This document shows, piece by piece, positions 19,403 through 36,095 of a stretch of DNA of 36,095 nucleotides. The notes beneath the pieces were generated by a model. That model did no database searches and was not told where the DNA came from. It was given only the letters and a program-made list of their open reading frames with translations. The stretch is from Candidatus Lloydbacteria bacterium RIFCSPLOWO2_01_FULL_50_20. GTDB lineage: Bacteria; Patescibacteriota; Minisyncoccia; Phycocordibacterales; UBA6899. Every line of letters begins with the position of its first letter. Positions within the stretch are counted from its first letter, which is position 1. The stretch lies in NCBI GenBank assembly GCA_001821435.1, contig MHLP01000004.1:1-36095 (forward strand), read 5' to 3'. Made by a program: the position numbers and the translations under genes.

Positions 19403-19756
19403 ATGCAATCCAACGGCTATCGCGATCTTATTGTTTGGCAAAAAGCCATTGAGTTGGTGATGCTCGTTTATGGTCTTGTAAGAGATTTTCCGCGAGAAGA
19501 AGTCTACGGTCTAACATCACAAATGAAACGGGCAGTTATATCTATTGCCTCAAATATTGCCGAAGGAAACAGAAGGTCATCACCAAAAGACAGGGGGCAT
19601 TTTCTTATTATTGCCTTTGGCTCAACGGCGGAACTTGAAACACAAATTGAAGTGAGTAAGCGTCTTCAATTTGGTAAAAAAGAAAAATATGACAAAATAG
19701 ACCCACTGCTTGATGAGGTTGCACGAATACTTAATAAAATGTCGAGCGGAGACTAA
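19403..19756 (+). CDS. four helix bundle protein (S23/23S rRNA intervening-sequence protein family)
   Basis: YRDLIVWQKAIELVMLVYGLVRDFPREEVYGLTSQMKRAVISIASNIAEGNRRSSPKDRGHFLIIAFGSTAELETQIEVSKRL. Confidence 0.92.
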   Translation: MQSNGYRDLIVWQKAIELVMLVYGLVRDFPREEVYGLTSQMKRAVISIASNIAEGNRRSSPKDRGHFLIIAFGSTAELETQIEVSKRLQFGKKEKYDKIDPLLDEVARILNKMSSGD

Positions 19757-23421: not shown

Positions 23422-26166
23422 TTATCGTATCACATCGTCTGTGCGCCGCTCAAATAAGAAATATTTTGCCGTTTCCACAACCGTAAAGTTGAGCACGATC
23501 GCTATGCCGACGAGGAACCATTGATACGGATGGTCTATCGGGACCAGGTGCAGGAGGTCGCGAACAGGTGCGACAAATAATGCGGCCAGGAGCCCCGTAA
23601 GCGCAAAAAGGGTTCCGCCAATGAGATAAATATTCGAAAAAAGTTTCGTAGAAAAAAGAGACGAACGAAGGTCTTTGAACGAAAAGGCCATAAGCACCGT
23701 TCCGAGCGTCAGTGCGACAAAGGTCAACGTACGGGCTTCAGGGAGTGAAAAAGCCAATACATTCAAGGAAAACCAATAAAGGAGAAGGAGGAGAAGCCCC
23801 GTGAAAATGCCGACCACACCGATCAATATCTGGAGCGACCGGGAAAACATATTTCGCGCTCCGGCATGCCGCGGATCGCGCGTCATGAGATCGTTCTCCT
23901 TCGGCTCGAACGCAAACGCAAAGTTCATAAATCCTTCGGAGAGGATATTCGTCCAAAGGATCTGCGTCGGAAGAAGCGGGAGCGGGAGGCCGATAAGGAG
24001 CGCCCCGCCGACCACGATGATCTCGCTTCCCGAAGTCGAGAGCAGGTAGGCAACGATCTTGCGTAAATTATCAACGATACACCTCCCTTCTTCGATTGCG
24101 GCGACAATGATCGAAAAGCTGTTATTGAGGAGAACAAGGTCCGACGCTTCTTTCGCAACTTCCGTCCCGGAACCGAGCGCAACGCCGATATTGGCGGCGC
24201 GGAGTGCCGGTGCATCATTTACTCCGTCGCCCGTCATCGCAACGACTTCGCCATCCCCTGAAAGCAGGCGTACAAGGCGTAATTTGTCGAGCGGGAGCAT
24301 GCGCGCAAAAACTGTCGTCTGTTTGATCCGTTCGGCGAGCTCCCCATCACTCAGTTTTTCAAGATCCGCCCCCTCAAGCGCATTTTCGCCTTCATGCCAT
24401 ATGCCGCACACTTTTGCATTCGCGCGCGCGGTTTCGATGTTATCGCCCGTCACCATAATGACGCGCGTCCCCGCTTTTTGTGCCGTCAGGATGGATGCAT
24501 TCACATCTTCGCGCAAGGGATCATGAAGTATGATCATGCCCGCAAAAATCAGTTCGTTGAGAAAGCGCGCGCGATCACGCGTATCTTCTTCTGAAAATTT
24601 TGCTCTATTCGTATCGCGAAATGCGACACCGATGACCCGCATTCCTTCCCCTGTATATTTTTTCAATACGCGCTCGAATTGGTCGCGTATTTTTTGCGAT
24701 AGAGGACGTGTCTTTCCTTCGGAATAGACGCTTCCGGTATGGGACAAGATCGCCTCCGGCGCACCGGTAATATACAAGCGATTATCGCTTAATCCGCGAA
24801 TATGATTGAGTGAGACGGCCATGCGATATTGTGAAGCAAAAGGGAGATGGTCGATACGCGGATAATTCGCAAGTAATTCGCGCTGATCAAGCCCCGAATC
24901 GAGCGCCGCCAGGACCACCGCACGCTCTACCGGACGTCCGCGAACGATCTGCTCCCGAAGCGGATCACTTTCTTTTCCTTCTGTTCCCGCTGTTTCTATG
25001 AAAGCGTCTGACGCAAGTGCGGCAAATTCAAGAACATCACGCTCATCTCCGTGCGCTTCGTGCTCTTTGTGCAGAGAGGGGCTCGTCCGCTCATACTCGA
25101 GAGAACCGAGTGTGACCACCCGCGCAACCCCCATCTCTCCCTTGGTCAGTGTCCCTGTCTTATCAGTCAATATCACTGTCGTCCCTCCAAGTGTTTCCGC
25201 TGCGAGCATATTGCGGACGAGTCCGCCACGCCGAAGTACCGCTTCCATGCCAATCGCCAAAACCACGGAAACAGCCGCAGGAAGCCCTTCCGGTATCGCC
25301 GCAACCGCAATAGCTATCGAGATCATCAGTAGTTCGGTGGTTTCTTCGCCGCGGAAGAGACCGACGGCAAAGATACAGACAAGCGCAGCAATGACAATAA
25401 TAGACAAAAAACGGGAGATCCTCGCGACATTTTCTTCAAGCGGAGTTTTCGGTGCCGTGGCGCCCTGAAGTGCCCTCGCAATGGCACCGATGGCAGTGTG
25501 GTCTCCGGTCGCAACAACGAGAGCCAGTCCTCCTCCGCCGACGACCAGTGTGCCCATAAAAACCATATTCTTCTGTTCGGTCTGAGGAAGTGTTCCATCG
25601 AGCGTTTTCGCATGCTTGCCGACCTCGATCCATTCTCCCGTGAGCGGAGACTCATTCACCTCAAGATTGCTCGCAGAAATAATGCGCGCATCGGCAGGAA
25701 CATGCATTCCTGTCTCAAGCACGAGTAAGTCTCCGGGAACAAGTTTTTCTGCGAGAATGCGCTCCTTTTGACCATTACGGACGACGACGGCAAACTTTTC
25801 CTGCGCGGCATGAAGCTTCAAAAAGGCCTGATCCGCCCTGCCTTCTTGATATATACTGATCGCGATATTAATGACCAATGCGAGAAAAATAACGGTCGAG
25901 TCAACATATTCCCGAAGAACTATCGTAAAGATCCCCGCGGAAAGAAGGATGTAGACAAGAGGACTTTTTAATGAAGAAATGACCCGCTCCGCCAGTGTCC
26001 GATGTTCAAGCGTGGAAAATGTGTTTGATCCGTGGCGTTCGAGGCGCACAGACGCTTCATTGCCGGTGAGACCCTGTGTAATATCACTTCCAAATTGCTG
26101 GAGGATCTCATCGATCGAATACTGATGCCACTCTTTCTTCCCAGTCTCGCGTGCCGCGTTGTGCAT
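23422..26166 (-). CDS. cation-translocating P-type ATPase (P2-type, Ca2+-ATPase-like)
   Basis: DKTGTLTKGE phosphorylation motif, GDNIETARANAKVCGI, MTGDGVNDAPALRAANIGVALGSGTEVAKEASDLVLLNNSF; start at 26166. Confidence 0.93.
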   Translation of the reverse strand: MHNAARETGKKEWHQYSIDEILQQFGSDITQGLTGNEASVRLERHGSNTFSTLEHRTLAERVISSLKSPLVYILLSAGIFTIVLREYVDSTVIFLALVINIAISIYQEGRADQAFLKLHAAQEKFAVVVRNGQKERILAEKLVPGDLLVLETGMHVPADARIISASNLEVNESPLTGEWIEVGKHAKTLDGTLPQTEQKNMVFMGTLVVGGGGLALVVATGDHTAIGAIARALQGATAPKTPLEENVARISRFLSIIVIAALVCIFAVGLFRGEETTELLMISIAIAVAAIPEGLPAAVSVVLAIGMEAVLRRGGLVRNMLAAETLGGTTVILTDKTGTLTKGEMGVARVVTLGSLEYERTSPSLHKEHEAHGDERDVLEFAALASDAFIETAGTEGKESDPLREQIVRGRPVERAVVLAALDSGLDQRELLANYPRIDHLPFASQYRMAVSLNHIRGLSDNRLYITGAPEAILSHTGSVYSEGKTRPLSQKIRDQFERVLKKYTGEGMRVIGVAFRDTNRAKFSEEDTRDRARFLNELIFAGMIILHDPLREDVNASILTAQKAGTRVIMVTGDNIETARANAKVCGIWHEGENALEGADLEKLSDGELAERIKQTTVFARMLPLDKLRLVRLLSGDGEVVAMTGDGVNDAPALRAANIGVALGSGTEVAKEASDLVLLNNSFSIIVAAIEEGRCIVDNLRKIVAYLLSTSGSEIIVVGGALLIGLPLPLLPTQILWTNILSEGFMNFAFAFEPKENDLMTRDPRHAGARNMFSRSLQILIGVVGIFTGLLLLLLYWFSLNVLAFSLPEARTLTFVALTLGTVLMAFSFKDLRSSLFSTKLFSNIYLIGGTLFALTGLLAALFVAPVRDLLHLVPIDHPYQWFLVGIAIVLNFTVVETAKYFLFERRTDDVIR

Positions 26167-26173
26167 GGTGTCA

Positions 26174-26179
26174 ATTATA
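26174..26179 (-). promoter_or_regulatory. -10 element (TATAAT) 7 nt before the P-type ATPase ATG
   Basis: TTTTGCTATAATTGACACCATG on the minus strand. Confidence 0.55.
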
Positions 26180-26318
26180 GCAAAAAACAGGATCCTGCCC
26201 CTTAACACATGTGCACAATAACCACTGCCTTATGCGAGCGCCGGATATGAAAACTTTTATTTCTTGACCAAATGTCATATACTGACCATATTCATTTATT
26301 GCATAATATTTCTTCATT

Positions 26319-28362: not shown

Positions 28363-29256
28363 TTATTTTCCAAAAACGAACTTGCGCCCAAATGCGATGC
28401 GGCGCCTTACGTATCCTTTCCACTCGTTCGGAGCGGAAGGATCGACGAACGTGACATAGCATCCGACGCGACATCCGCTGTCTACGCATACACGTGCAAG
28501 CGAATGACCGATCGGTCCGTCAAGAAATTGGATGGTAAAACGATCAAAAGAAACACGCTCGCGGACGGCGATCGCGACCAGTGAATCGATCAGCTCCCGA
28601 TCGCGCATCGTGGCGATATTCGGATGTTTCTTCTTGGCGATCTGTTCCTGAAATGTCTCCGCATAGCGTGCGAGGACTTCCTTGTCGTTCAGTTCCGGTG
28701 CGCCGATATCATAGAGCCCCGACCCCTTCACGATGCGTACGGGCATATCAAGGATACGATATTGTGTAATGAGCTCTTTGCGTACGTTCTCGGGCAGATG
28801 CATCTGAAATGCCGGACGAAATCTGATCCCTTTGGGCAGTCTGAACACGAGAGAATTCAGCACGCGTTGCACCGCAAAAAGCGTCCCGCGATCTTCAGCG
28901 TCGATCTCGATCTCAAGGGACTTGTCCGAAACCGCCTCAATAAAACGCCGGAGAGTTCGCGCAAACACATAAGATCCCAACCCTATTCCAAACGCCGACG
29001 GTTTAATGGCAACATGACCCTTGTTTGTCGCATCCATCGCTCGCACCAACTCGATGTATGAACAGAGAATGCGCTCAACATGCTCTTTATTTTTTACGTG
29101 TTCGTCAATACGATTATAGGTCGGTGTGATTCCTTCCATAACAAGCCCTTCCCCGTGCGCCAATGCTGCAGAAACTCCGCCAAATACGACGAATCTTCGC
29201 GCAATGATCCGCCCGAAAAGAAAAAAAATAAGCCGATCGAACGTTTTCATCAACAT
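28363..29256 (-). CDS. proline dehydrogenase-like (PRODH/PutA barrel) protein
   Basis: HVAIKPSAFGIGLG, LEIEIDAEDRGTL, FRPAFQMHL, VRIVKGSGLYD, IATMRDRELIDSLVAIA, GCRVGCYVTFVDPSAPNEWKGYVRRRI follow the order of PRODH barrel motifs; SD GGGAGAGGGTC-ATG. Confidence 0.75.
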   Translation of the reverse strand: MLMKTFDRLIFFLFGRIIARRFVVFGGVSAALAHGEGLVMEGITPTYNRIDEHVKNKEHVERILCSYIELVRAMDATNKGHVAIKPSAFGIGLGSYVFARTLRRFIEAVSDKSLEIEIDAEDRGTLFAVQRVLNSLVFRLPKGIRFRPAFQMHLPENVRKELITQYRILDMPVRIVKGSGLYDIGAPELNDKEVLARYAETFQEQIAKKKHPNIATMRDRELIDSLVAIAVRERVSFDRFTIQFLDGPIGHSLARVCVDSGCRVGCYVTFVDPSAPNEWKGYVRRRIAFGRKFVFGK

Positions 29257-29552: not shown

Positions 29553-31676
29553 CTATTCTTCCCTCTCCTCCAGCTTTTCGATATCCCAAACCTCTTTCCC
29601 GATGCGCTGCTCCGCATCCTTCAGGTCGCGGTAGAGTTCTTCTTCGCGTGCGACTTCTTCCGGAGTGGGCTTTCGGGATTGTTTTCCACTCTTGAGCACA
29701 ACGAGTTCCCTCTCGATATCCCGGCGAATAACCGCGAACCCGCGCTTGATCGACTCTTCCGCCTCACGCACCTCTTGAAGCAAGAGCTGATGTTTCCGCC
29801 GATGATGGTACGCATGATAGAAGGTGTATATGGCCAAGAGCATGATAACGACCAGCAAGAAGAGGGCGGCGATAAGATAGAGCGCCTCGAAGGTGATCCG
29901 CGAGACACCAAAGACGATAGCGGCGCGCGCAACGATCATTTCCATCTGCGCCGACGGAGGACTCGTCAGATTGCCTACTTTCGCCTGAGTCCAAAGAACA
30001 TATTTGCCCGGAGTAAGAAAACTGTTGTGGCGGTAGAACCATTCGCCGTTTTTATCGGAGGTCACACTGTAGCTCGCCGTTTCCCCTGAAGTGAGATCTT
30101 GCGTAAAGATGGTCACCGTTGTTCCGCGGATTTCCGTCTCTCCGCCGACATAAAAGATCTCGTTGTTCGTAATATTCTTCGAGAGCGTCGTGACATAAGG
30201 AGGCGCCAATTCGACAACGCCATCGACTGTGTTTTCAACCTGTGCATGAGCTTTCTGTGTTCCGGAAAGAGTGAACAAAGAGCCGGCAAGGAATAGAAGG
30301 AGAACGAGTACCCCTCCGTATTTACTCTTGTAGCGGCGGAGTTCTTCGAGCTGCTGGCTGACATTTTCGGGTAATGTTCCGGCTTCACGAGCATCGTGCA
30401 CCGCATCATGCTTCTTTTTGAACCAGTAGGCGATGTACCCAAGAACAAGAACGAGAAAAAGGAGAGCGCCCAAAAGCCACCGCCATCCGACCACCAGCGG
30501 ACCGAGAATAAGCCCTTCGGCACTGCTAAAACCGAAGAACCGCGGCGTAACGACGATCCGTTTGACCACTTCTAAATAATTTCCCGCCTTGTCGTAGGCG
30601 CGGACAAAAACATCGTATGAACCGACAGCCAATGTCGGCAGAATATACGGACTTTCCGCCTCAATAAAGAAAAACTGAGTTCCGGGATCTCCGTCTCCAT
30701 TATTCTGCGGCTGAAGCGACACGAGCTTGAGTTCATAATGTGTCAATCCGGAAAGCGTATCCGTGGTGCCGAATTTGACGATCGGATTGCGAACATTCGT
30801 ACGCCTGCCCGGCAAAATTTCGAGCGGAAACTGAGCCGGCGGTTCGGTATCAGTCTTGACCGCAAAATGAGTGATGCCGCCCCACGATCCCTCGCGAAAG
30901 GCCTTGATATGAAAATAATGTTTTCCGTCCGGAACACTTTTGTAAACGATCGAAGCGCGGCTCCCTTCTGAAGTGTCGTCGGGAATGGAGATCGGTTCTT
31001 CATCGAAAATATAACTATAACCTTGTATAGGATCATGGTTCGCCCAGCTGAGGAGTATGTTCGGATTCGCGTACCATTCGGATTGATTCGGGTGTGTTTC
31101 CGATACGACGATCGGCCCGGCCGGCGGCGGAAGGACGAGCGTATACACCGCATTTTCCTGCCGGCGAAGATCGTCCGTACCGAGTCCGTCATTCAAGAGC
31201 ACTTTCGAGACATCGGAAAAAGTGAGGATGGCCGTACCGACCGATTTGACCCGAAAGGTGAGTTTCGCAATAAGCGCATTATTCACGTTTACCCCCCGCG
31301 GAATTCCCCCCTGCAGATGAACACGCCCGCTCTCATTGTTGAACTGCGGCTGACTGGTCCACAGCGAGATGATCGAGACGCTCGTATTCGGAGACACGAG
31401 TTGTAATTGCCCCGGAGGAAATCGAAGGTCGACATCGAGCGCGTTGATCGACTTTCCTTCCGTATCGAGGAGGATCTGCACGTCGAACGTACTCCCGACC
31501 GTAAATGTGCCGGAACTTGGTGAAAGTAAAAAAGCGGCTGCCTCGACTTTTGACGGAACAAAAACAAAAAAGAGTGCAAAAAAACACAGCATGGCGCGGA
31601 TGGTGTTCACCCGCAGTAAATTGTTTCCGTCTATAGCTCGGAGAGCAAATGTCAAAAGACCCTGTTTATTGTGCAT
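29553..31676 (-). CDS. membrane-anchored cohesin-like domain protein with Ig-like repeats, internal TM segments and cytoplasmic coiled-coil tail
   Basis: N-terminal signal then FLLSPSSGTFTVGSTFDVQILLDTEGKSINALDVDLRFPPGQLQLVS...VHLQGGIPRGVNVNNALIAKLTFRVKSVGTAILTF (cohesin-like); two Ig-like regions; TM segments near residues 400-418, 454-472 and in the C-terminal third. Confidence 0.8.
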   Translation of the reverse strand: MHNKQGLLTFALRAIDGNNLLRVNTIRAMLCFFALFFVFVPSKVEAAAFLLSPSSGTFTVGSTFDVQILLDTEGKSINALDVDLRFPPGQLQLVSPNTSVSIISLWTSQPQFNNESGRVHLQGGIPRGVNVNNALIAKLTFRVKSVGTAILTFSDVSKVLLNDGLGTDDLRRQENAVYTLVLPPPAGPIVVSETHPNQSEWYANPNILLSWANHDPIQGYSYIFDEEPISIPDDTSEGSRASIVYKSVPDGKHYFHIKAFREGSWGGITHFAVKTDTEPPAQFPLEILPGRRTNVRNPIVKFGTTDTLSGLTHYELKLVSLQPQNNGDGDPGTQFFFIEAESPYILPTLAVGSYDVFVRAYDKAGNYLEVVKRIVVTPRFFGFSSAEGLILGPLVVGWRWLLGALLFLVLVLGYIAYWFKKKHDAVHDAREAGTLPENVSQQLEELRRYKSKYGGVLVLLLFLAGSLFTLSGTQKAHAQVENTVDGVVELAPPYVTTLSKNITNNEIFYVGGETEIRGTTVTIFTQDLTSGETASYSVTSDKNGEWFYRHNSFLTPGKYVLWTQAKVGNLTSPPSAQMEMIVARAAIVFGVSRITFEALYLIAALFLLVVIMLLAIYTFYHAYHHRRKHQLLLQEVREAEESIKRGFAVIRRDIERELVVLKSGKQSRKPTPEEVAREEELYRDLKDAEQRIGKEVWDIEKLEEREE

Positions 31677-32625
31677 GGCGTTTTCGCTTTCGGCCCCAGA
31701 GCAACAGGAATAAGCCTGCGGCTACTATCAGTATAAAGGAAATAAGCCATTTATTGAACAAGCTTTGGCCATTTTCTGGTGATAACTGCACAGGGCGGTT
31801 TACCTCCACGACAGACGCATTTCCCTCGCGATCCGTCACGCGAACGTAGATATAACCTGAATTTGCCGAGGATACGAGGGGGGCAAGATTATCAATAAGG
31901 CGCCAGGTTAAGCCCCGATCGTTCTTGAGCGTCTCGTCCGGATACCGCTCTCCTGTTTCCAGCAGTTCATACGTCGCAATGCCGCTTTCGGCGTCTTTCG
32001 CATGAATGATAATGAACGGCTGACCGTCGAACATTCCTTCGCTTTGGTAAATGACCGCTCTGATATCCTGCGGCGGCGTTATATCCTCCGGCGCCAAAGC
32101 GGGCGTTTCGGCTCCGGTAAACACGCCTACGGGAAAAGCGATCTCATTCGAGGAAAGCTGCTCTGCTTCCCCGAGGAGCGTGTGCTCGAACGTCGTGCCT
32201 GTCATCGTCAGTCGAAGTACCCCGGAGTAGCGCGGCACCACATAAAGAGTCATGATCTTTCCGTGCGCCGTCGTCACACCGCCCGGAATGATACCGGAAA
32301 AATTCACTCGGCGGGTATCGTCCGACTTCGCCTTCACAAGCCATGCACCAACGATGGAATCACCGTCGTGAATTCGGCTTATCGTCACATCGTCGGATGA
32401 CGCCTGTAACTCTATATCGCCGGAAAAAGAAATTTTCACTTCGCCGGAGAGTGCGTTCACAGCCTTGCCGGCAGTGTCCAAAAAAAGTTCTATGGCAACC
32501 TCTTGCCCGAGAATCACTGGACCTGTCGATGTAGCGGTCAACTGCGCAGAAGCGGCGAATGCCAACCCCGCCGGAAATATCAGCAGGCCGACAACCGCAA
32601 CCGCAAGAAAAGAAAATTTTTCCAT
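31666..32625 (-). CDS. cohesin-like domain protein with C-terminal TM anchor
   Basis: Signal peptide; GPVILGQEVAIELFLDTAGKAVNALSGEVKISFSGDIELQA...VNFSGIIPGGVTTAHGKIMTLYVVPRYSGVLRLTM; C-terminal WLISFILIVAAGLFLLLWGRKRKRHAQ. Confidence 0.78.
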   Translation of the reverse strand: MEKFSFLAVAVVGLLIFPAGLAFAASAQLTATSTGPVILGQEVAIELFLDTAGKAVNALSGEVKISFSGDIELQASSDDVTISRIHDGDSIVGAWLVKAKSDDTRRVNFSGIIPGGVTTAHGKIMTLYVVPRYSGVLRLTMTGTTFEHTLLGEAEQLSSNEIAFPVGVFTGAETPALAPEDITPPQDIRAVIYQSEGMFDGQPFIIIHAKDAESGIATYELLETGERYPDETLKNDRGLTWRLIDNLAPLVSSANSGYIYVRVTDREGNASVVEVNRPVQLSPENGQSLFNKWLISFILIVAAGLFLLLWGRKRKRHAQ

Positions 32626-32643
32626 AAGTTGAATATTTGACCG

Positions 32644-33522
32644 TTACACTGGGCGCTCATACCAGTAATATGCCATCACGCTAAAATCGGCGAGATCGAC
32701 CTTCCCGTCCTTGGCGAGATCGATGCGAGCGGGCGGATCCTTTTTATCAAACCAATAGTACATGATGGAAAAATCGATAATGTCGACATAGCCGTCGCAG
32801 TTGAGATCGGCGACACTACTGCAATCACCAATGGGCGGTTCAGTGAAGGGCGGAAGGATGATGGGGGGGAATCTTGGAGGAAAAGTCGGCGGTGTTGTAA
32901 AGGGAGGTGTGACACCCGGGGGATAAACAATTCCTCCTCCGCCGCCCGGTGCCGGTGTTGGTGAGGGAGTTGAAGCGACGGGCGTTGCCGAAACCTCGGT
33001 CGATGTCGCAATGATATTCCCGAAGAAATCTTTCGGCACGACGACAAAATAATATGCCGTTCCGTTGGTGAGGCTTGAGACAGTCGCACTCGTTACGTTT
33101 CCGACCGCAGTATACGTATATGGTCCGCCCGAGACGGTACTATGGCCGATGCTATAGCCTGAAACCGTCCAACCCAAGAAACCAGTTGAAGGACTCCACG
33201 AAAGGCTTGCCGAAGCGTCACCGGAGAGGGCCGTGGGCGTCGGCTTGCTGACATAGGGGAAATACTCAAAACCGGAACGCAATTCACGGACGTTTCCGGC
33301 AGCTGCAGTCGACGTCCCGATGGAAGGCTGACCGATCGTGACGGTCATGGAATAGCCTGAAGAGGTGGCATATCCTGAGGGAGCGATAACGGGATCCTTC
33401 ACCATAAACGAAGGGGAGGTATAGTCGGTTGCCTCTGCGATTCCTGCCGCAAAAAAAACACTAAAGAAAATAAGGGAAGACGCTAAAAAGAATGAGCGAG
33501 ACTTGAATCCCTCGGATCGCAT
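32644..33522 (-). CDS. secreted FN3-like and dockerin type I domain protein
   Basis: Signal peptide; FN3-like region (GWTVSGYSIGHSTVSGGPYTYTAVGNVTSATVSSLTNGTAYYFVVVPKD); Pro/Gly linker; C-terminal DLNCDGYVDIIDFSIMYYWF and DLAKDGKVDLADFSVMAYYW duplicated Ca-binding repeats. Confidence 0.88.
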   Translation of the reverse strand: MRSEGFKSRSFFLASSLIFFSVFFAAGIAEATDYTSPSFMVKDPVIAPSGYATSSGYSMTVTIGQPSIGTSTAAAGNVRELRSGFEYFPYVSKPTPTALSGDASASLSWSPSTGFLGWTVSGYSIGHSTVSGGPYTYTAVGNVTSATVSSLTNGTAYYFVVVPKDFFGNIIATSTEVSATPVASTPSPTPAPGGGGGIVYPPGVTPPFTTPPTFPPRFPPIILPPFTEPPIGDCSSVADLNCDGYVDIIDFSIMYYWFDKKDPPARIDLAKDGKVDLADFSVMAYYWYERPV

Positions 33523-33580: not shown

Positions 33581-34389
33581 CCTACCAAGGCCCGCCCTAT
33601 GTACACAGGGCGGGCCTTGGTAGGTCTGGTATTAGTCAGAATTTTTTCTCTCTGGTTCATCTTTGAAGATCCGCTCTTCCACGGAGAACTTGAGCCAATC
33701 AGTGATATACTCTTTAAAATCATCAGTTTTCTCAAAATATACGGGGAAATCTTCCCCCGAAAGAATGAGGCTCTCTTCACGATCAACCCCAAGATAGTCT
33801 TGGTAGCTCGAATAGCAATAATTACTTAGATATTGCTGCACTTTCTTGCTCTCCTTGATCCCCCCCTCTTCCTTCCAGTGTGGTTCGATCAGTTTCACGG
33901 GATTGAGGTGAATGTAGGCAAAGAGATATTTCAAATACTCATCACGATCAACATGTTCCGCTTTAAACCTACTTTGAAAAAGCGGGCCGATGCGTTCATG
34001 TACTTTGTTAAAATACATTGAATATGCCGTCGCAAGCTTCCCCATAAAACTGGTCAATCCACCTTGAGTAATTTCTTTTACAAGAATATGAAAGTGATTT
34101 GGCATAAGACAGTATGCACCGACCGCAACAAGTGACTCCCCTCTTTCTATGTTTCCGAACGACATCTTTTCGATGTCACGAAAAATAATAGGATTTTTGC
34201 TGTTTGAGACGAACAATAGTTTATGGAAGCGCTCATAATCTCTAATTCCGCGAAATATTTCGCGCTTCTCAACACCACGATTGTAGAGGTGATAATATTC
34301 GCCAATAGAAAATTCGATCTTTCGCTCCATACTATGGTACTAGTCTACCACCAAGGCCCGCCCTATGTACATAGGGCGGGCCTTGGTGG
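33581..34389 (-). mobile_element. compact transposase element bounded by two long palindromes
   Basis: 33581-33624 CCTACCAAGGCCCGCCCTATGTACACAGGGCGGGCCTTGGTAGG and 34348-34389 CCACCAAGGCCCGCCCTATGTACATAGGGCGGGCCTTGGTGG flank a Y1 transposase ORF. Confidence 0.8.
33632..34330 (-). CDS. REP-associated-type tyrosine (Y1, IS200-like) transposase
   Basis: EYYHLYNRGVEKREIF, VAVGAYCLMPNHFHILVKEI (HUH motif HFH), GPLFQSRFKAEHVDRDEYLKYLFAYIHLNPV. Confidence 0.92.
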   Translation of the reverse strand: MERKIEFSIGEYYHLYNRGVEKREIFRGIRDYERFHKLLFVSNSKNPIIFRDIEKMSFGNIERGESLVAVGAYCLMPNHFHILVKEITQGGLTSFMGKLATAYSMYFNKVHERIGPLFQSRFKAEHVDRDEYLKYLFAYIHLNPVKLIEPHWKEEGGIKESKKVQQYLSNYCYSSYQDYLGVDREESLILSGEDFPVYFEKTDDFKEYITDWLKFSVEERIFKDEPERKNSD

Positions 34390-34408
34390 ATGGGTTATTT
34401 CAAAAGAA

Positions 34409-36095
34409 TCAGAAAAGAGAGAGTGCGGCGCTCAATTTTTCTGCGATAAACGCAACGAACGTATCGCTCGCAAGAATGAGGTTTTGTCCCGCTTTATAGA
34501 CACCCGCAAGATTCCTGAAGTATGGGGCCAAAACTTCCCCTCCTCCGCCCGGCCCGCCGCCTCCTGCGACATGGTGCACCTTCACCTGAATGGCGTCCAC
34601 ATTCACCGTGTTCAATGAGGGCTCTGCGATAAGACGCACCTTGAAATTCGCATCTGAAAATTCAGCCGGCGTCCAAGTGCGACCCCATGTACTGGATGGT
34701 CCGCCAAGCGTTACCACCGTATCTGATTCCGTAAGCGTCGTTGAAGTTTCAATGGTTGTTGTCGTTCCCGTGCCGCCATTCCACGAGAGGGCGACGGAAA
34801 TGGTTCCGCCCGCAGGATTTGTACTGGAAAGTTCGAGCTTCACTTGAATGCCGTTCACGGTATTCGACCCCGGAACGGAGAAGCCGAAACCTCCATAATC
34901 TTCTCGGAACCATGACGATGCTGCGGTCGCATCTGCGCCATCAGACGCAAAAGCGTAGTCGGGAGTGGTCCACTCATCAAATGTGCCGCCGCTGGTGGTC
35001 GGAGGAAAGAAGCCGGGACTGCTGCCGATCTCCTGATCCTCCGCGCCGGCGCCTGGTCCGCCTCCGATCGCAATGCTCTGCCCTGCTGGTGCGGCAAATC
35101 CGATCACACCGCCACCTCGTGGGAATTTCACATGCTGTACCGCGCTCAGAGCGGTAAGGGAAGCGGGCGTCGTAGCAAGCAATGAAGTCACCCCGCTCGA
35201 AGTGACGTTGTTCGGGGTGAGCGCAATGGTCACTTGGTCTCCGAATCCGATGCTTGCAAGATCGGCAACCAACAAATAGTCGCGCGTCGTCGTTGCGGTA
35301 AAGTCGGAGGAGAAGGTTATCGTGCCGGTCTGTCCCGATACTGCTGCTGTCCCCGCGTCTCCCATCTGCGTGTCCCCTCCGTCGACTGTCTTATTGCCAT
35401 TATAGTCAACATAGAGTTTCGCGTTGGTGATGTCTCCTGCGGCGATACCGTTCACTCCGCTCAAGTTGAAAACAAGATTCGTCACGCTCATATTTTCTCC
35501 GCCCGCAAGCGTAAGATTGAAGCCATAGAGGACGGCTCCTGAAACGGATGTTTCCGACGTATCAATATCATTCGTCACCTGTCCGCCCGCATGTTCGACG
35601 CCCGCGACCGTTCCCTTGATAGTTATTGTTTTGCTGTCCGTGGAATCTCCCGTCTGGTCCGCCGCACCGCCGAGAAAGAGTTTGAGACCACTGAGCGGCG
35701 CCGTTGCGGTCGCAAAACTCGTGAATGAAAGTGCGCTCACGACTAGTGTCTCGCCAGGATCAAAATCGTCAGAAACCGTAATACGGAGCACGCTTCCTCC
35801 GCCTTCATATGCAACCGGATTCGCGACTTTTCCGGTATCAAAGGCGCTTCCGGTCATTTCCGCACCGAGATCAGTTGTGTCCCAAAGCATAAAGGTCGTT
35901 GACGTAGCAATAGCGATGCGCAAATCACTTGCATCAGTAATGGTCGGAGAAAGCAGGTCAGTGATCGTTATTGTCGAGATCGCAGTGATGCCATCCCCGA
36001 CCGTGAACGTCTGATTTGCCGCCGAAGCGATCGTTGCGCCTGTGGCGAAATCCCAACACGAGTTTCCGCCGATGTTGTAGCTATTCGTCACATTG
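34409..36095 (-). CDS. C-terminal part of a very large Thr/Ser/Gly-rich surface protein (5' end outside the window)
   Basis: Repetitive beta-rich sequence with NGNKTVDGGD and many Ig/adhesin-like segments; Met at 36091 is probably internal; ends with a GGGGPGGGG linker and a short C-terminal helix. Confidence 0.7.
   Translation of the reverse strand, partial: NVTNSYNIGGNSCWDFATGATIASAANQTFTVGDGITAISTITITDLLSPTITDASDLRIAIATSTTFMLWDTTDLGAEMTGSAFDTGKVANPVAYEGGGSVLRITVSDDFDPGETLVVSALSFTSFATATAPLSGLKLFLGGAADQTGDSTDSKTITIKGTVAGVEHAGGQVTNDIDTSETSVSGAVLYGFNLTLAGGENMSVTNLVFNLSGVNGIAAGDITNAKLYVDYNGNKTVDGGDTQMGDAGTAAVSGQTGTITFSSDFTATTTRDYLLVADLASIGFGDQVTIALTPNNVTSSGVTSLLATTPASLTALSAVQHVKFPRGGGVIGFAAPAGQSIAIGGGPGAGAEDQEIGSSPGFFPPTTSGGTFDEWTTPDYAFASDGADATAASSWFREDYGGFGFSVPGSNTVNGIQVKLELSSTNPAGGTISVALSWNGGTGTTTTIETSTTLTESDTVVTLGGPSSTWGRTWTPAEFSDANFKVRLIAEPSLNTVNVDAIQVKVHHVAGGGGPGGGGEVLAPYFRNLAGVYKAGQNLILASDTFVAFIAEKLSAALSLF

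What the first reader, a model, noticed from the sequence alone, without database searches (positions are those of the whole stretch)
29553..33522. Linked cohesin-dockerin surface locus outside a cellulosome context
Three consecutive minus-strand genes encode a secreted protein ending in a textbook two-repeat dockerin (DLNCDGYVDIIDFS / DLAKDGKVDLADFS) and two proteins that each start with a cohesin-like domain and carry TM anchors. No glycoside hydrolase is visible nearby. Having both halves of a Ca-dependent plug-and-socket in one operon-like cluster of a small-genome bacterium suggests a minimal surface-docking system, for example for host attachment or for displaying secreted proteins. Family assignments come from known cohesin and dockerin motifs; the pairing and function are inference.
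Basis: partly seen in the sequence, partly recalled or inferred. Interest (0 to 1): 0.75.

Follow-up and report, generated by a model that had tools for sequence, protein, structure and literature searches.

The report
Self-contained cohesin–dockerin surface cassette
Three neighbouring genes of a tiny, probably host-dependent bacterium encode a secreted protein with a calcium-dependent plug and two membrane-anchored proteins with the matching socket fold; the same three-gene set recurs across its phylum with no link to cellulose digestion, which suggests a general way for these cells to fix proteins to their surface.

Summary
On the minus strand, in order, lie a secreted fn3 protein with a C-terminal dockerin (32644-33522), a cohesin protein with one TM anchor (31666-32625) and a longer multi-TM cohesin protein (29553-31676). 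Pfam alone is weak: dockerin is at the cut-off, cohesin is below cut-off in the long protein and absent in the short one. A lineage profile built without the window finds both cohesins. AlphaFold/Foldseek puts solved cohesins first for the short protein and a cohesin-fn3 construct first for the long one. The genome has one dockerin and two cohesins, all here.

The arrangement is not a local oddity. Of 148 genomes of the order, 46 have both modules, 43 of them physically linked; 32 show dockerin plus at least two cohesins on one side. The same triad occurs elsewhere in Patescibacteria. None of 27 dockerin proteins scanned carries an enzyme domain.

Best reading: a non-cellulosomal, calcium-dependent surface-docking cassette, a dedicated dockerin ligand with two anchored receptors. 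Binding itself is inferred. Non-cellulosomal cohesin/dockerin modules are known; I found no paper describing this cassette in Patescibacteria, although a dockerin protein is essential in the cultivated epibiont Southlakia (PMC10633639).

The parts
32644..33522 (-). Secreted dockerin protein (292 aa): N-terminal hydrophobic signal, conserved 'S-F...GQ...SGF' region, fn3 domain (res ~101-179), Pro/Gly-rich linker, C-terminal dockerin
   Evidence: N-terminal 43-51% identical to dockerin proteins of the same cassette in L085, L089, L090, L092, L093, L097
32647..32826 (-). Dockerin module with two F-hand repeats; second loop lacks the position-3 calcium ligand (Ala)
   Evidence: PF00404 24.8 bits, 21.9 bits; repeat alignment
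31666..32625 (-). Short cohesin-TM protein (319 aa): signal peptide, cohesin (res ~25-165), Ig-like region, TM (~293-311), basic cytosolic tail
   Evidence: no Pfam hit; held-out lineage profile E 2.6e-9; A7 profile 3.4e-13; top four Foldseek PDB hits are cohesins 2vo8, 2jh2, 2w1n, 6kgc; TM
29553..31676 (-). Long cohesin protein (707 aa): hydrophobic N-terminal signal, cohesin (res ~47-180), two Ig/fn3-like domains (~185-378), TM (~397), cytosolic loop, TM (~454), Big_13 (501-565), TM (~598), charged coiled-coil tail
   Evidence: PF00963 21.5 bits and Big_13 27.3 bits; held-out profile E 1.2e-31; Foldseek top hit 2w1n cohesin-fn3; same 4-hydrophobic-segment form in L089 and L090
34409..36094 (-). 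Upstream large secreted-type surface protein, cut off by the contig end; possible partner or cargo, not shown
   Evidence: 41% identical over ~520 aa to L085:8490-11927, which also precedes a triad
33632..34330 (-). REP-associated tyrosine transposase-like gene lying between the large gene and the triad (neighbour, not part of the system)
   Evidence: Y1_Tnp 34.1 bits, NF047646 E 6e-11; flanked by matching palindromes 33581-33624 and 34347-34390

Best explanation
A non-cellulosomal cohesin-dockerin cassette. The two cohesin proteins are exported and held in the cytoplasmic membrane by C-terminal TM segments, so their cohesins face outward on stalks of Ig-like domains. The fn3-bearing protein is secreted, its dockerin folds with Ca2+, and it docks onto one or both cohesins. 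This fixes a non-enzymatic Ig/fn3 module on the surface without a sortase or outer membrane. Shown here: genes, order, folds, TM anchors, recurrence, absence of enzyme domains. Inferred: Ca2+-dependent binding, that the dockerin's partners are these two cohesins, surface topology, and the purpose (most likely adhesion or building of a surface layer).
For: Folds: Pfam, held-out profiles and Foldseek. Closed set: one dockerin and two cohesins in the whole 97%-complete genome, all here. Linkage: 31 of 39 Pfam cohesin hits in the order lie within 3 kb of a dockerin, about 1% expected. With the lineage profile, 95 of 128 hits are linked; 46 of 56 cohesin-bearing genomes also have a dockerin against 63 of 148 overall (Fisher p 1e-14), and 43 of those 46 are linked. 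Same order, dockerin then short cohesin-TM then long cohesin-TM, in at least 15 other loci of the order and in other orders of the phylum (L143, L147, L148). Dockerin repeats are on average 56% identical to each other with a shared 'D-F-S-I' helix, as in symmetric type I dockerins. None of 27 dockerin proteins scanned has an enzyme domain; 19 have Big_6.
Against: No binding data. The AlphaFold read-through construct gave no interface confidence, so docking was not tested. Loop 2 of this dockerin has lost one Ca2+ ligand, and the short cohesin lacks the conserved C-terminal '(L/A)NDGxGT' motif, so this pair may be weakened. Ten of 56 cohesin-bearing genomes lack a detectable Pfam dockerin, although Pfam misses diverged ones.
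Confidence: 0.7

Rival explanations
1. The cohesin fold is used only as a stalk or adhesive domain; dockerin and cohesins travel together because they are surface genes of one operon, but do not bind each other.
For: Sequence similarity to known cohesins is weak; all three proteins are Ig-rich surface proteins; binding not tested.
Against: Two modules known as binding partners co-occur and are linked far above chance across very distant genomes, and fused cohesin-dockerin proteins exist beside the clusters.
Confidence: 0.15
2. The pair builds an extended surface polymer or layer: cohesin-dockerin units link head to tail or tie a large repeat protein (such as 34409-36094) to the membrane receptors.
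For: Relatives encode signal-anchor + cohesin + dockerin fusions next to the triad (L062, L066, L067, L071, L072); large surface genes lie upstream of the triad in the window and L085.
Against: The window genome has no cohesin-dockerin fusion, and no dockerin was seen on the large upstream protein, so at best a short chain is possible here. This refines the best explanation rather than opposing it.
Confidence: 0.2
3. Trans-binding: the dockerin protein or the cohesins bridge to partner modules on other cells (sisters or host), so the locus is a cell-cell adhesin pair.
For: Patescibacteria are typically episymbionts, and a dockerin-domain protein (SEML1_0315) is essential for epibiotic growth of Southlakia (PMC10633639).
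Against: Both halves are encoded side by side in the same genome, so cis-binding would saturate them; no host is known.
Confidence: 0.1
4. A degenerate or minimal cellulosome that gathers polymer-degrading enzymes.
For: Same module types as cellulosomes.
Against: No enzyme domain on any of 27 dockerin proteins, no scaffoldin with tandem cohesins, no glycoside hydrolase found in the window proteins scanned, one dockerin in the genome.
Confidence: 0.02

Closest known systems
Non-cellulosomal cohesin/dockerin modules across the three domains of life (Peer et al. 2009, cited in PMC8542988, PMC9012536 and PMC10066038; not itself readable here)
   Same: Cohesin and dockerin modules in organisms that do not degrade cellulose
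   Different: Here a fixed three-gene cassette with one dockerin protein and two differently sized TM-anchored cohesin proteins recurs across a phylum
Clostridium perfringens non-cellulosomal cohesins (2vo8, 2jh2, 2w1n)
   Same: Closest solved folds to the window cohesins, including a cohesin followed by an fn3 domain
   Different: Those cohesins sit on glycoside hydrolases; here they sit on Ig-domain TM proteins with no enzyme
ANME archaeal cohesin/dockerin proteins (PMC9012536)
   Same: Proposed surface attachment of functional proteins and contact with partner cells
   Different: ANME use S-layer domains and up to five cohesins on one protein; here one cohesin per TM protein
Essential dockerin-domain protein SEML1_0315 of Southlakia epibionticum (PMC10633639)
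   Same: Dockerin protein in an epibiotic member of the same phylum, essential by Tn-seq
   Different: Authors suggest glycan targeting and mention no cohesin; whether a TM-cohesin gene lies beside it was not tested here
Clostridial cellulosome
   Same: Dockerin-cohesin docking modules
   Different: No scaffoldin, no cellulose-binding module, no dockerin-bearing enzymes

Membership tests
Type I dockerin (PF00404) | Profile match above curated cut-off | tested here: inconclusive
   24.8 bits in the six-frame search (over 22.9), 21.9 bits in hmmscan (under); 26 of 27 proteins, window's included, match at E<=1e-3
Type I dockerin (PF00404) | Two near-identical calcium-loop-helix repeats | tested here: met
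   Two repeats, 50% identical over 22 residues; relatives mean 56%
Type I dockerin (PF00404) | Complete Ca2+ ligands (1,3,5,12) in both loops | tested here: not met
   Loop 1 complete; loop 2 has Ala at position 3. Two relatives in the same cassette (L093, L097) also have a degenerate second loop; described as a dockerin-like module with a degenerate second loop
Cohesin (PF00963) | Profile match above curated cut-off | tested here: not met
   Long protein 21.5 bits against 24.1; short protein none. Relatives of the long protein pass: L063 29.6, L067 24.3; 21 of 148 genomes over cut-off
Cohesin (PF00963) | Cohesin fold | tested here: met
   Foldseek top hits of the AlphaFold models are solved cohesins; held-out lineage profile
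Cohesin (PF00963) | Binds a dockerin | not testable with these tools
   No complex prediction with interface confidence and no bench data
Cellulosome | Scaffoldin with several cohesins | tested here: not met
   One cohesin per protein; two cohesins in the genome
Cellulosome | Dockerin-bearing polysaccharide-degrading enzymes | tested here: not met
   Single dockerin protein in the genome, no enzyme domain; none in 26 relatives
Non-cellulosomal cohesin-dockerin system | Both modules encoded, in a non-enzymatic context, with surface anchoring | tested here: met

The most novel reading that the evidence does not exclude
A phylum-wide, previously undescribed Patescibacterial surface machine: paired membrane cohesin receptors (short and long) that capture a dedicated dockerin-tagged Ig protein, sometimes with cohesin-dockerin fusion proteins as polymerisable links, forming the outer adhesive layer by which these cells hold on to hosts. 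The essential dockerin protein of Southlakia would be an example.
Probability: 0.3. Interest if true: 0.85.

Novelty: new variant of a known kind. Interest (0 to 1): 0.62.

Why it matters
How Patescibacteria, most of which are uncultivated, build their surface and hold hosts is largely unknown. A conserved receptor-ligand cassette in roughly a third of sampled Patescibacteria genomes (lineage cohesin profile in 136 of 381, dockerin in 175 of 381) gives a concrete, testable set of proteins. It also offers another reading of an essential dockerin protein in a genetically tractable epibiont, and provides small natural cohesin-dockerin pairs unrelated to cellulose.

Tried and rejected
Cellulosome reading: rejected. 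Pfam and phmmer-to-PDB on single sequences were too weak to settle the short cohesin; solved by the held-out profile and fold search.

The alignment A1 was too diverged for a scan of genome contigs; A3 returned four named relatives.

I joined dockerin and short cohesin by reading the intervening TAA as a residue (the two genes are in frame) to give AlphaFold a single chain. The model supports the folds, but the tool returns no interface confidence, so I draw no binding claim from it.

The promoter scan is below chance and not informative. Papers combining cohesin/dockerin with Patescibacteria, Parcubacteria, CPR or Saccharibacteria gave no description of the cassette.

Considered and set aside: a mirror-tree test of dockerin against cohesin, because shared ancestry would confound it.

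Full report
WHAT IS THERE. The window is one whole contig (C4, 36,095 b) of a 0.99-Mb genome, 97% complete. So this is a Patescibacterium, probably Ca. Lloydbacteria. The dockerin gene ends 18 bp before the first cohesin gene, and the two cohesin genes overlap by 11 bp.

MODULE IDENTITY. Dockerin: PF00404 24.8 bits in the six-frame search, 21.9 in hmmscan, cut-off 22.9. Loop 1 is complete; loop 2 carries Ala at ligand position 3, where 25 of 26 relatives have N or D. Cohesins: Pfam sees only the long protein, below cut-off. A profile from 20 relatives' domains, without either window protein, finds the long protein at E 1.2e-31 and the short one at 2.6e-9 among 182 ORFs. AlphaFold models built from small alignments (7 and 4 rows; pLDDT 74 and 62.5) give, for the short protein, Foldseek top four hits that are all cohesins (2vo8, 2jh2, 2w1n, 6kgc; E 1e-8 to 4e-6). 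For the long protein the top hit is the C. perfringens cohesin-fn3 construct 2w1n, with 6kgf and 2vn5 further down.

ARCHITECTURE. Short protein: signal peptide, cohesin, Ig-like region, one TM, basic tail. Long protein: hydrophobic N-terminal signal, cohesin, two Ig/fn3 domains, TM, cytosolic loop, a second hydrophobic segment that looks like an internal signal peptide, Big_13, TM, coiled-coil tail. Dockerin protein: signal, conserved SGF-motif region, fn3, Pro-rich linker, dockerin. Its N-terminal 180 residues are 43-51% identical to dockerin proteins of the same cassette in L085, L089, L090, L092, L093 and L097. At least two of these (L085, L089) carry extra Ig-like sequence before the dockerin, which the window and L090 lack. 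Topology is inferred from hydrophobicity and charge.

CONSERVATION. In the genus-family group 6 of 8 genomes have relatives of the long cohesin protein. Fetched loci show dockerin, then short cohesin-TM, then long cohesin-TM in the same order in L062, L066, L067, L072, L085-L091, L093, L097, L101 and L102, with L092 carrying an additional cohesin gene. Several have a TM protein with weak WxL-interacting-protein similarity upstream. A second cassette form places an HSP20 gene between dockerin and cohesin (L063, L069, L099). Outside the order the triad reappears in L143, L147 and L148, and looser linked pairs occur in complete genomes.

STATISTICS. With Pfam alone, 39 cohesin hits were found in 148 genomes of the order; 31 lie within 3 kb of a dockerin hit, against roughly 1% expected from dockerin density, and 25 of 30 cohesin genomes also have a dockerin (Fisher p 4e-7). 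With the lineage profile A7: 56 genomes with cohesin, 63 with dockerin, 46 with both (p 1e-14); 43 genomes have at least one linked pair and 32 have dockerin plus two or more cohesins on one side. Caveats: hits inside one cassette are not independent, some linked pairs are fusions in a single ORF, and A7 was built partly from linked loci, so the Pfam-only figures are the cleaner test. Related genomes are also not independent.

FUNCTION. No enzyme domain occurs on any of 27 dockerin proteins; they are Ig-type proteins. The window genome encodes a closed set of one dockerin and two cohesins. The economical reading is that the dockerin protein is captured on the surface by membrane-anchored cohesins. 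Ca2+ dependence and symmetric binding by the repeats are inferred from family knowledge. The purpose, adhesion or layer assembly, is inference. Relatives with signal-anchor + cohesin + dockerin fusions next to the triad hint at chains in some species, not in this one.

LITERATURE. Non-cellulosomal cohesin/dockerin use is established (Peer et al. 2009 as cited in PMC8542988, PMC9012536 and PMC10066038). A dockerin-domain protein is essential in the Patescibacterium Southlakia epibionticum, interpreted there as glycan-targeting, with no mention of cohesin in the text (PMC10633639). I found no description of the cassette; the library is open-access only, so absence is not proof.

VERDICT. Observation confirmed; interpretation partly supported and broadened from a local curiosity to a phylum-level cassette. 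New variant of a known kind.

Noticed in passing
33581-34390: The RAYT-like Y1 transposase gene is flanked on both sides by near-identical ~44-bp palindromes (33581-33624 and 34347-34390), as expected of REP elements with their transposase; a related gene sits at the equivalent place upstream of the triad in L090 and L085. The genome has six Y1_Tnp matches.
   Followed up: partly
L062:5728-6411, L066:10971-11651, L067:4290-5060, L071:6598-7314, L072:1861-2541: Small proteins with an N-terminal hydrophobic anchor, one cohesin and a C-terminal dockerin, mostly beside the triads: potential head-to-tail polymer units.
   Followed up: partly
29553-31676, residues ~452-481 of the 707-aa protein: Internal signal-peptide-like stretch (LVLLLFLAGSLFTLSGTQKAHA) between the first TM and the Big_13 domain, also in the L089 and L090 versions; looks like a fusion of two surface genes or a TM hairpin.
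   Followed up: no
L063:7696-8202, L069:7710-8225, L099:5543-6019: HSP20 small heat-shock gene between the dockerin and cohesin genes in a second cassette form, followed by a giant surface gene in L063; the function of a cytosolic chaperone in this position is unclear.
   Followed up: partly
L062:11354-12445, L064:8988-9938, L063:10887-11930, L101:3531-4565: TM-anchored proteins upstream of the dockerin gene, with weak similarity to the WxL-interacting-protein peptidoglycan-binding domain in L063, L064 and L101.
   Followed up: partly
34409-36094: Large surface protein cut by the contig end, no Pfam match, 41% identical to a protein upstream of the triad in L085.
   Followed up: partly
28363-29256: Proline dehydrogenase-like protein, far below the equivalog cut-off, directly downstream of the triad.
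   Followed up: no
23422-26208: P-type cation ATPase of the calcium-pump type (Cation_ATPase_N and _C) on the same strand, a few kb downstream.
   Followed up: no
19403-19756: 23S rRNA-intervening-sequence/bAvd-like four-helix protein as a stand-alone gene.
   Followed up: no
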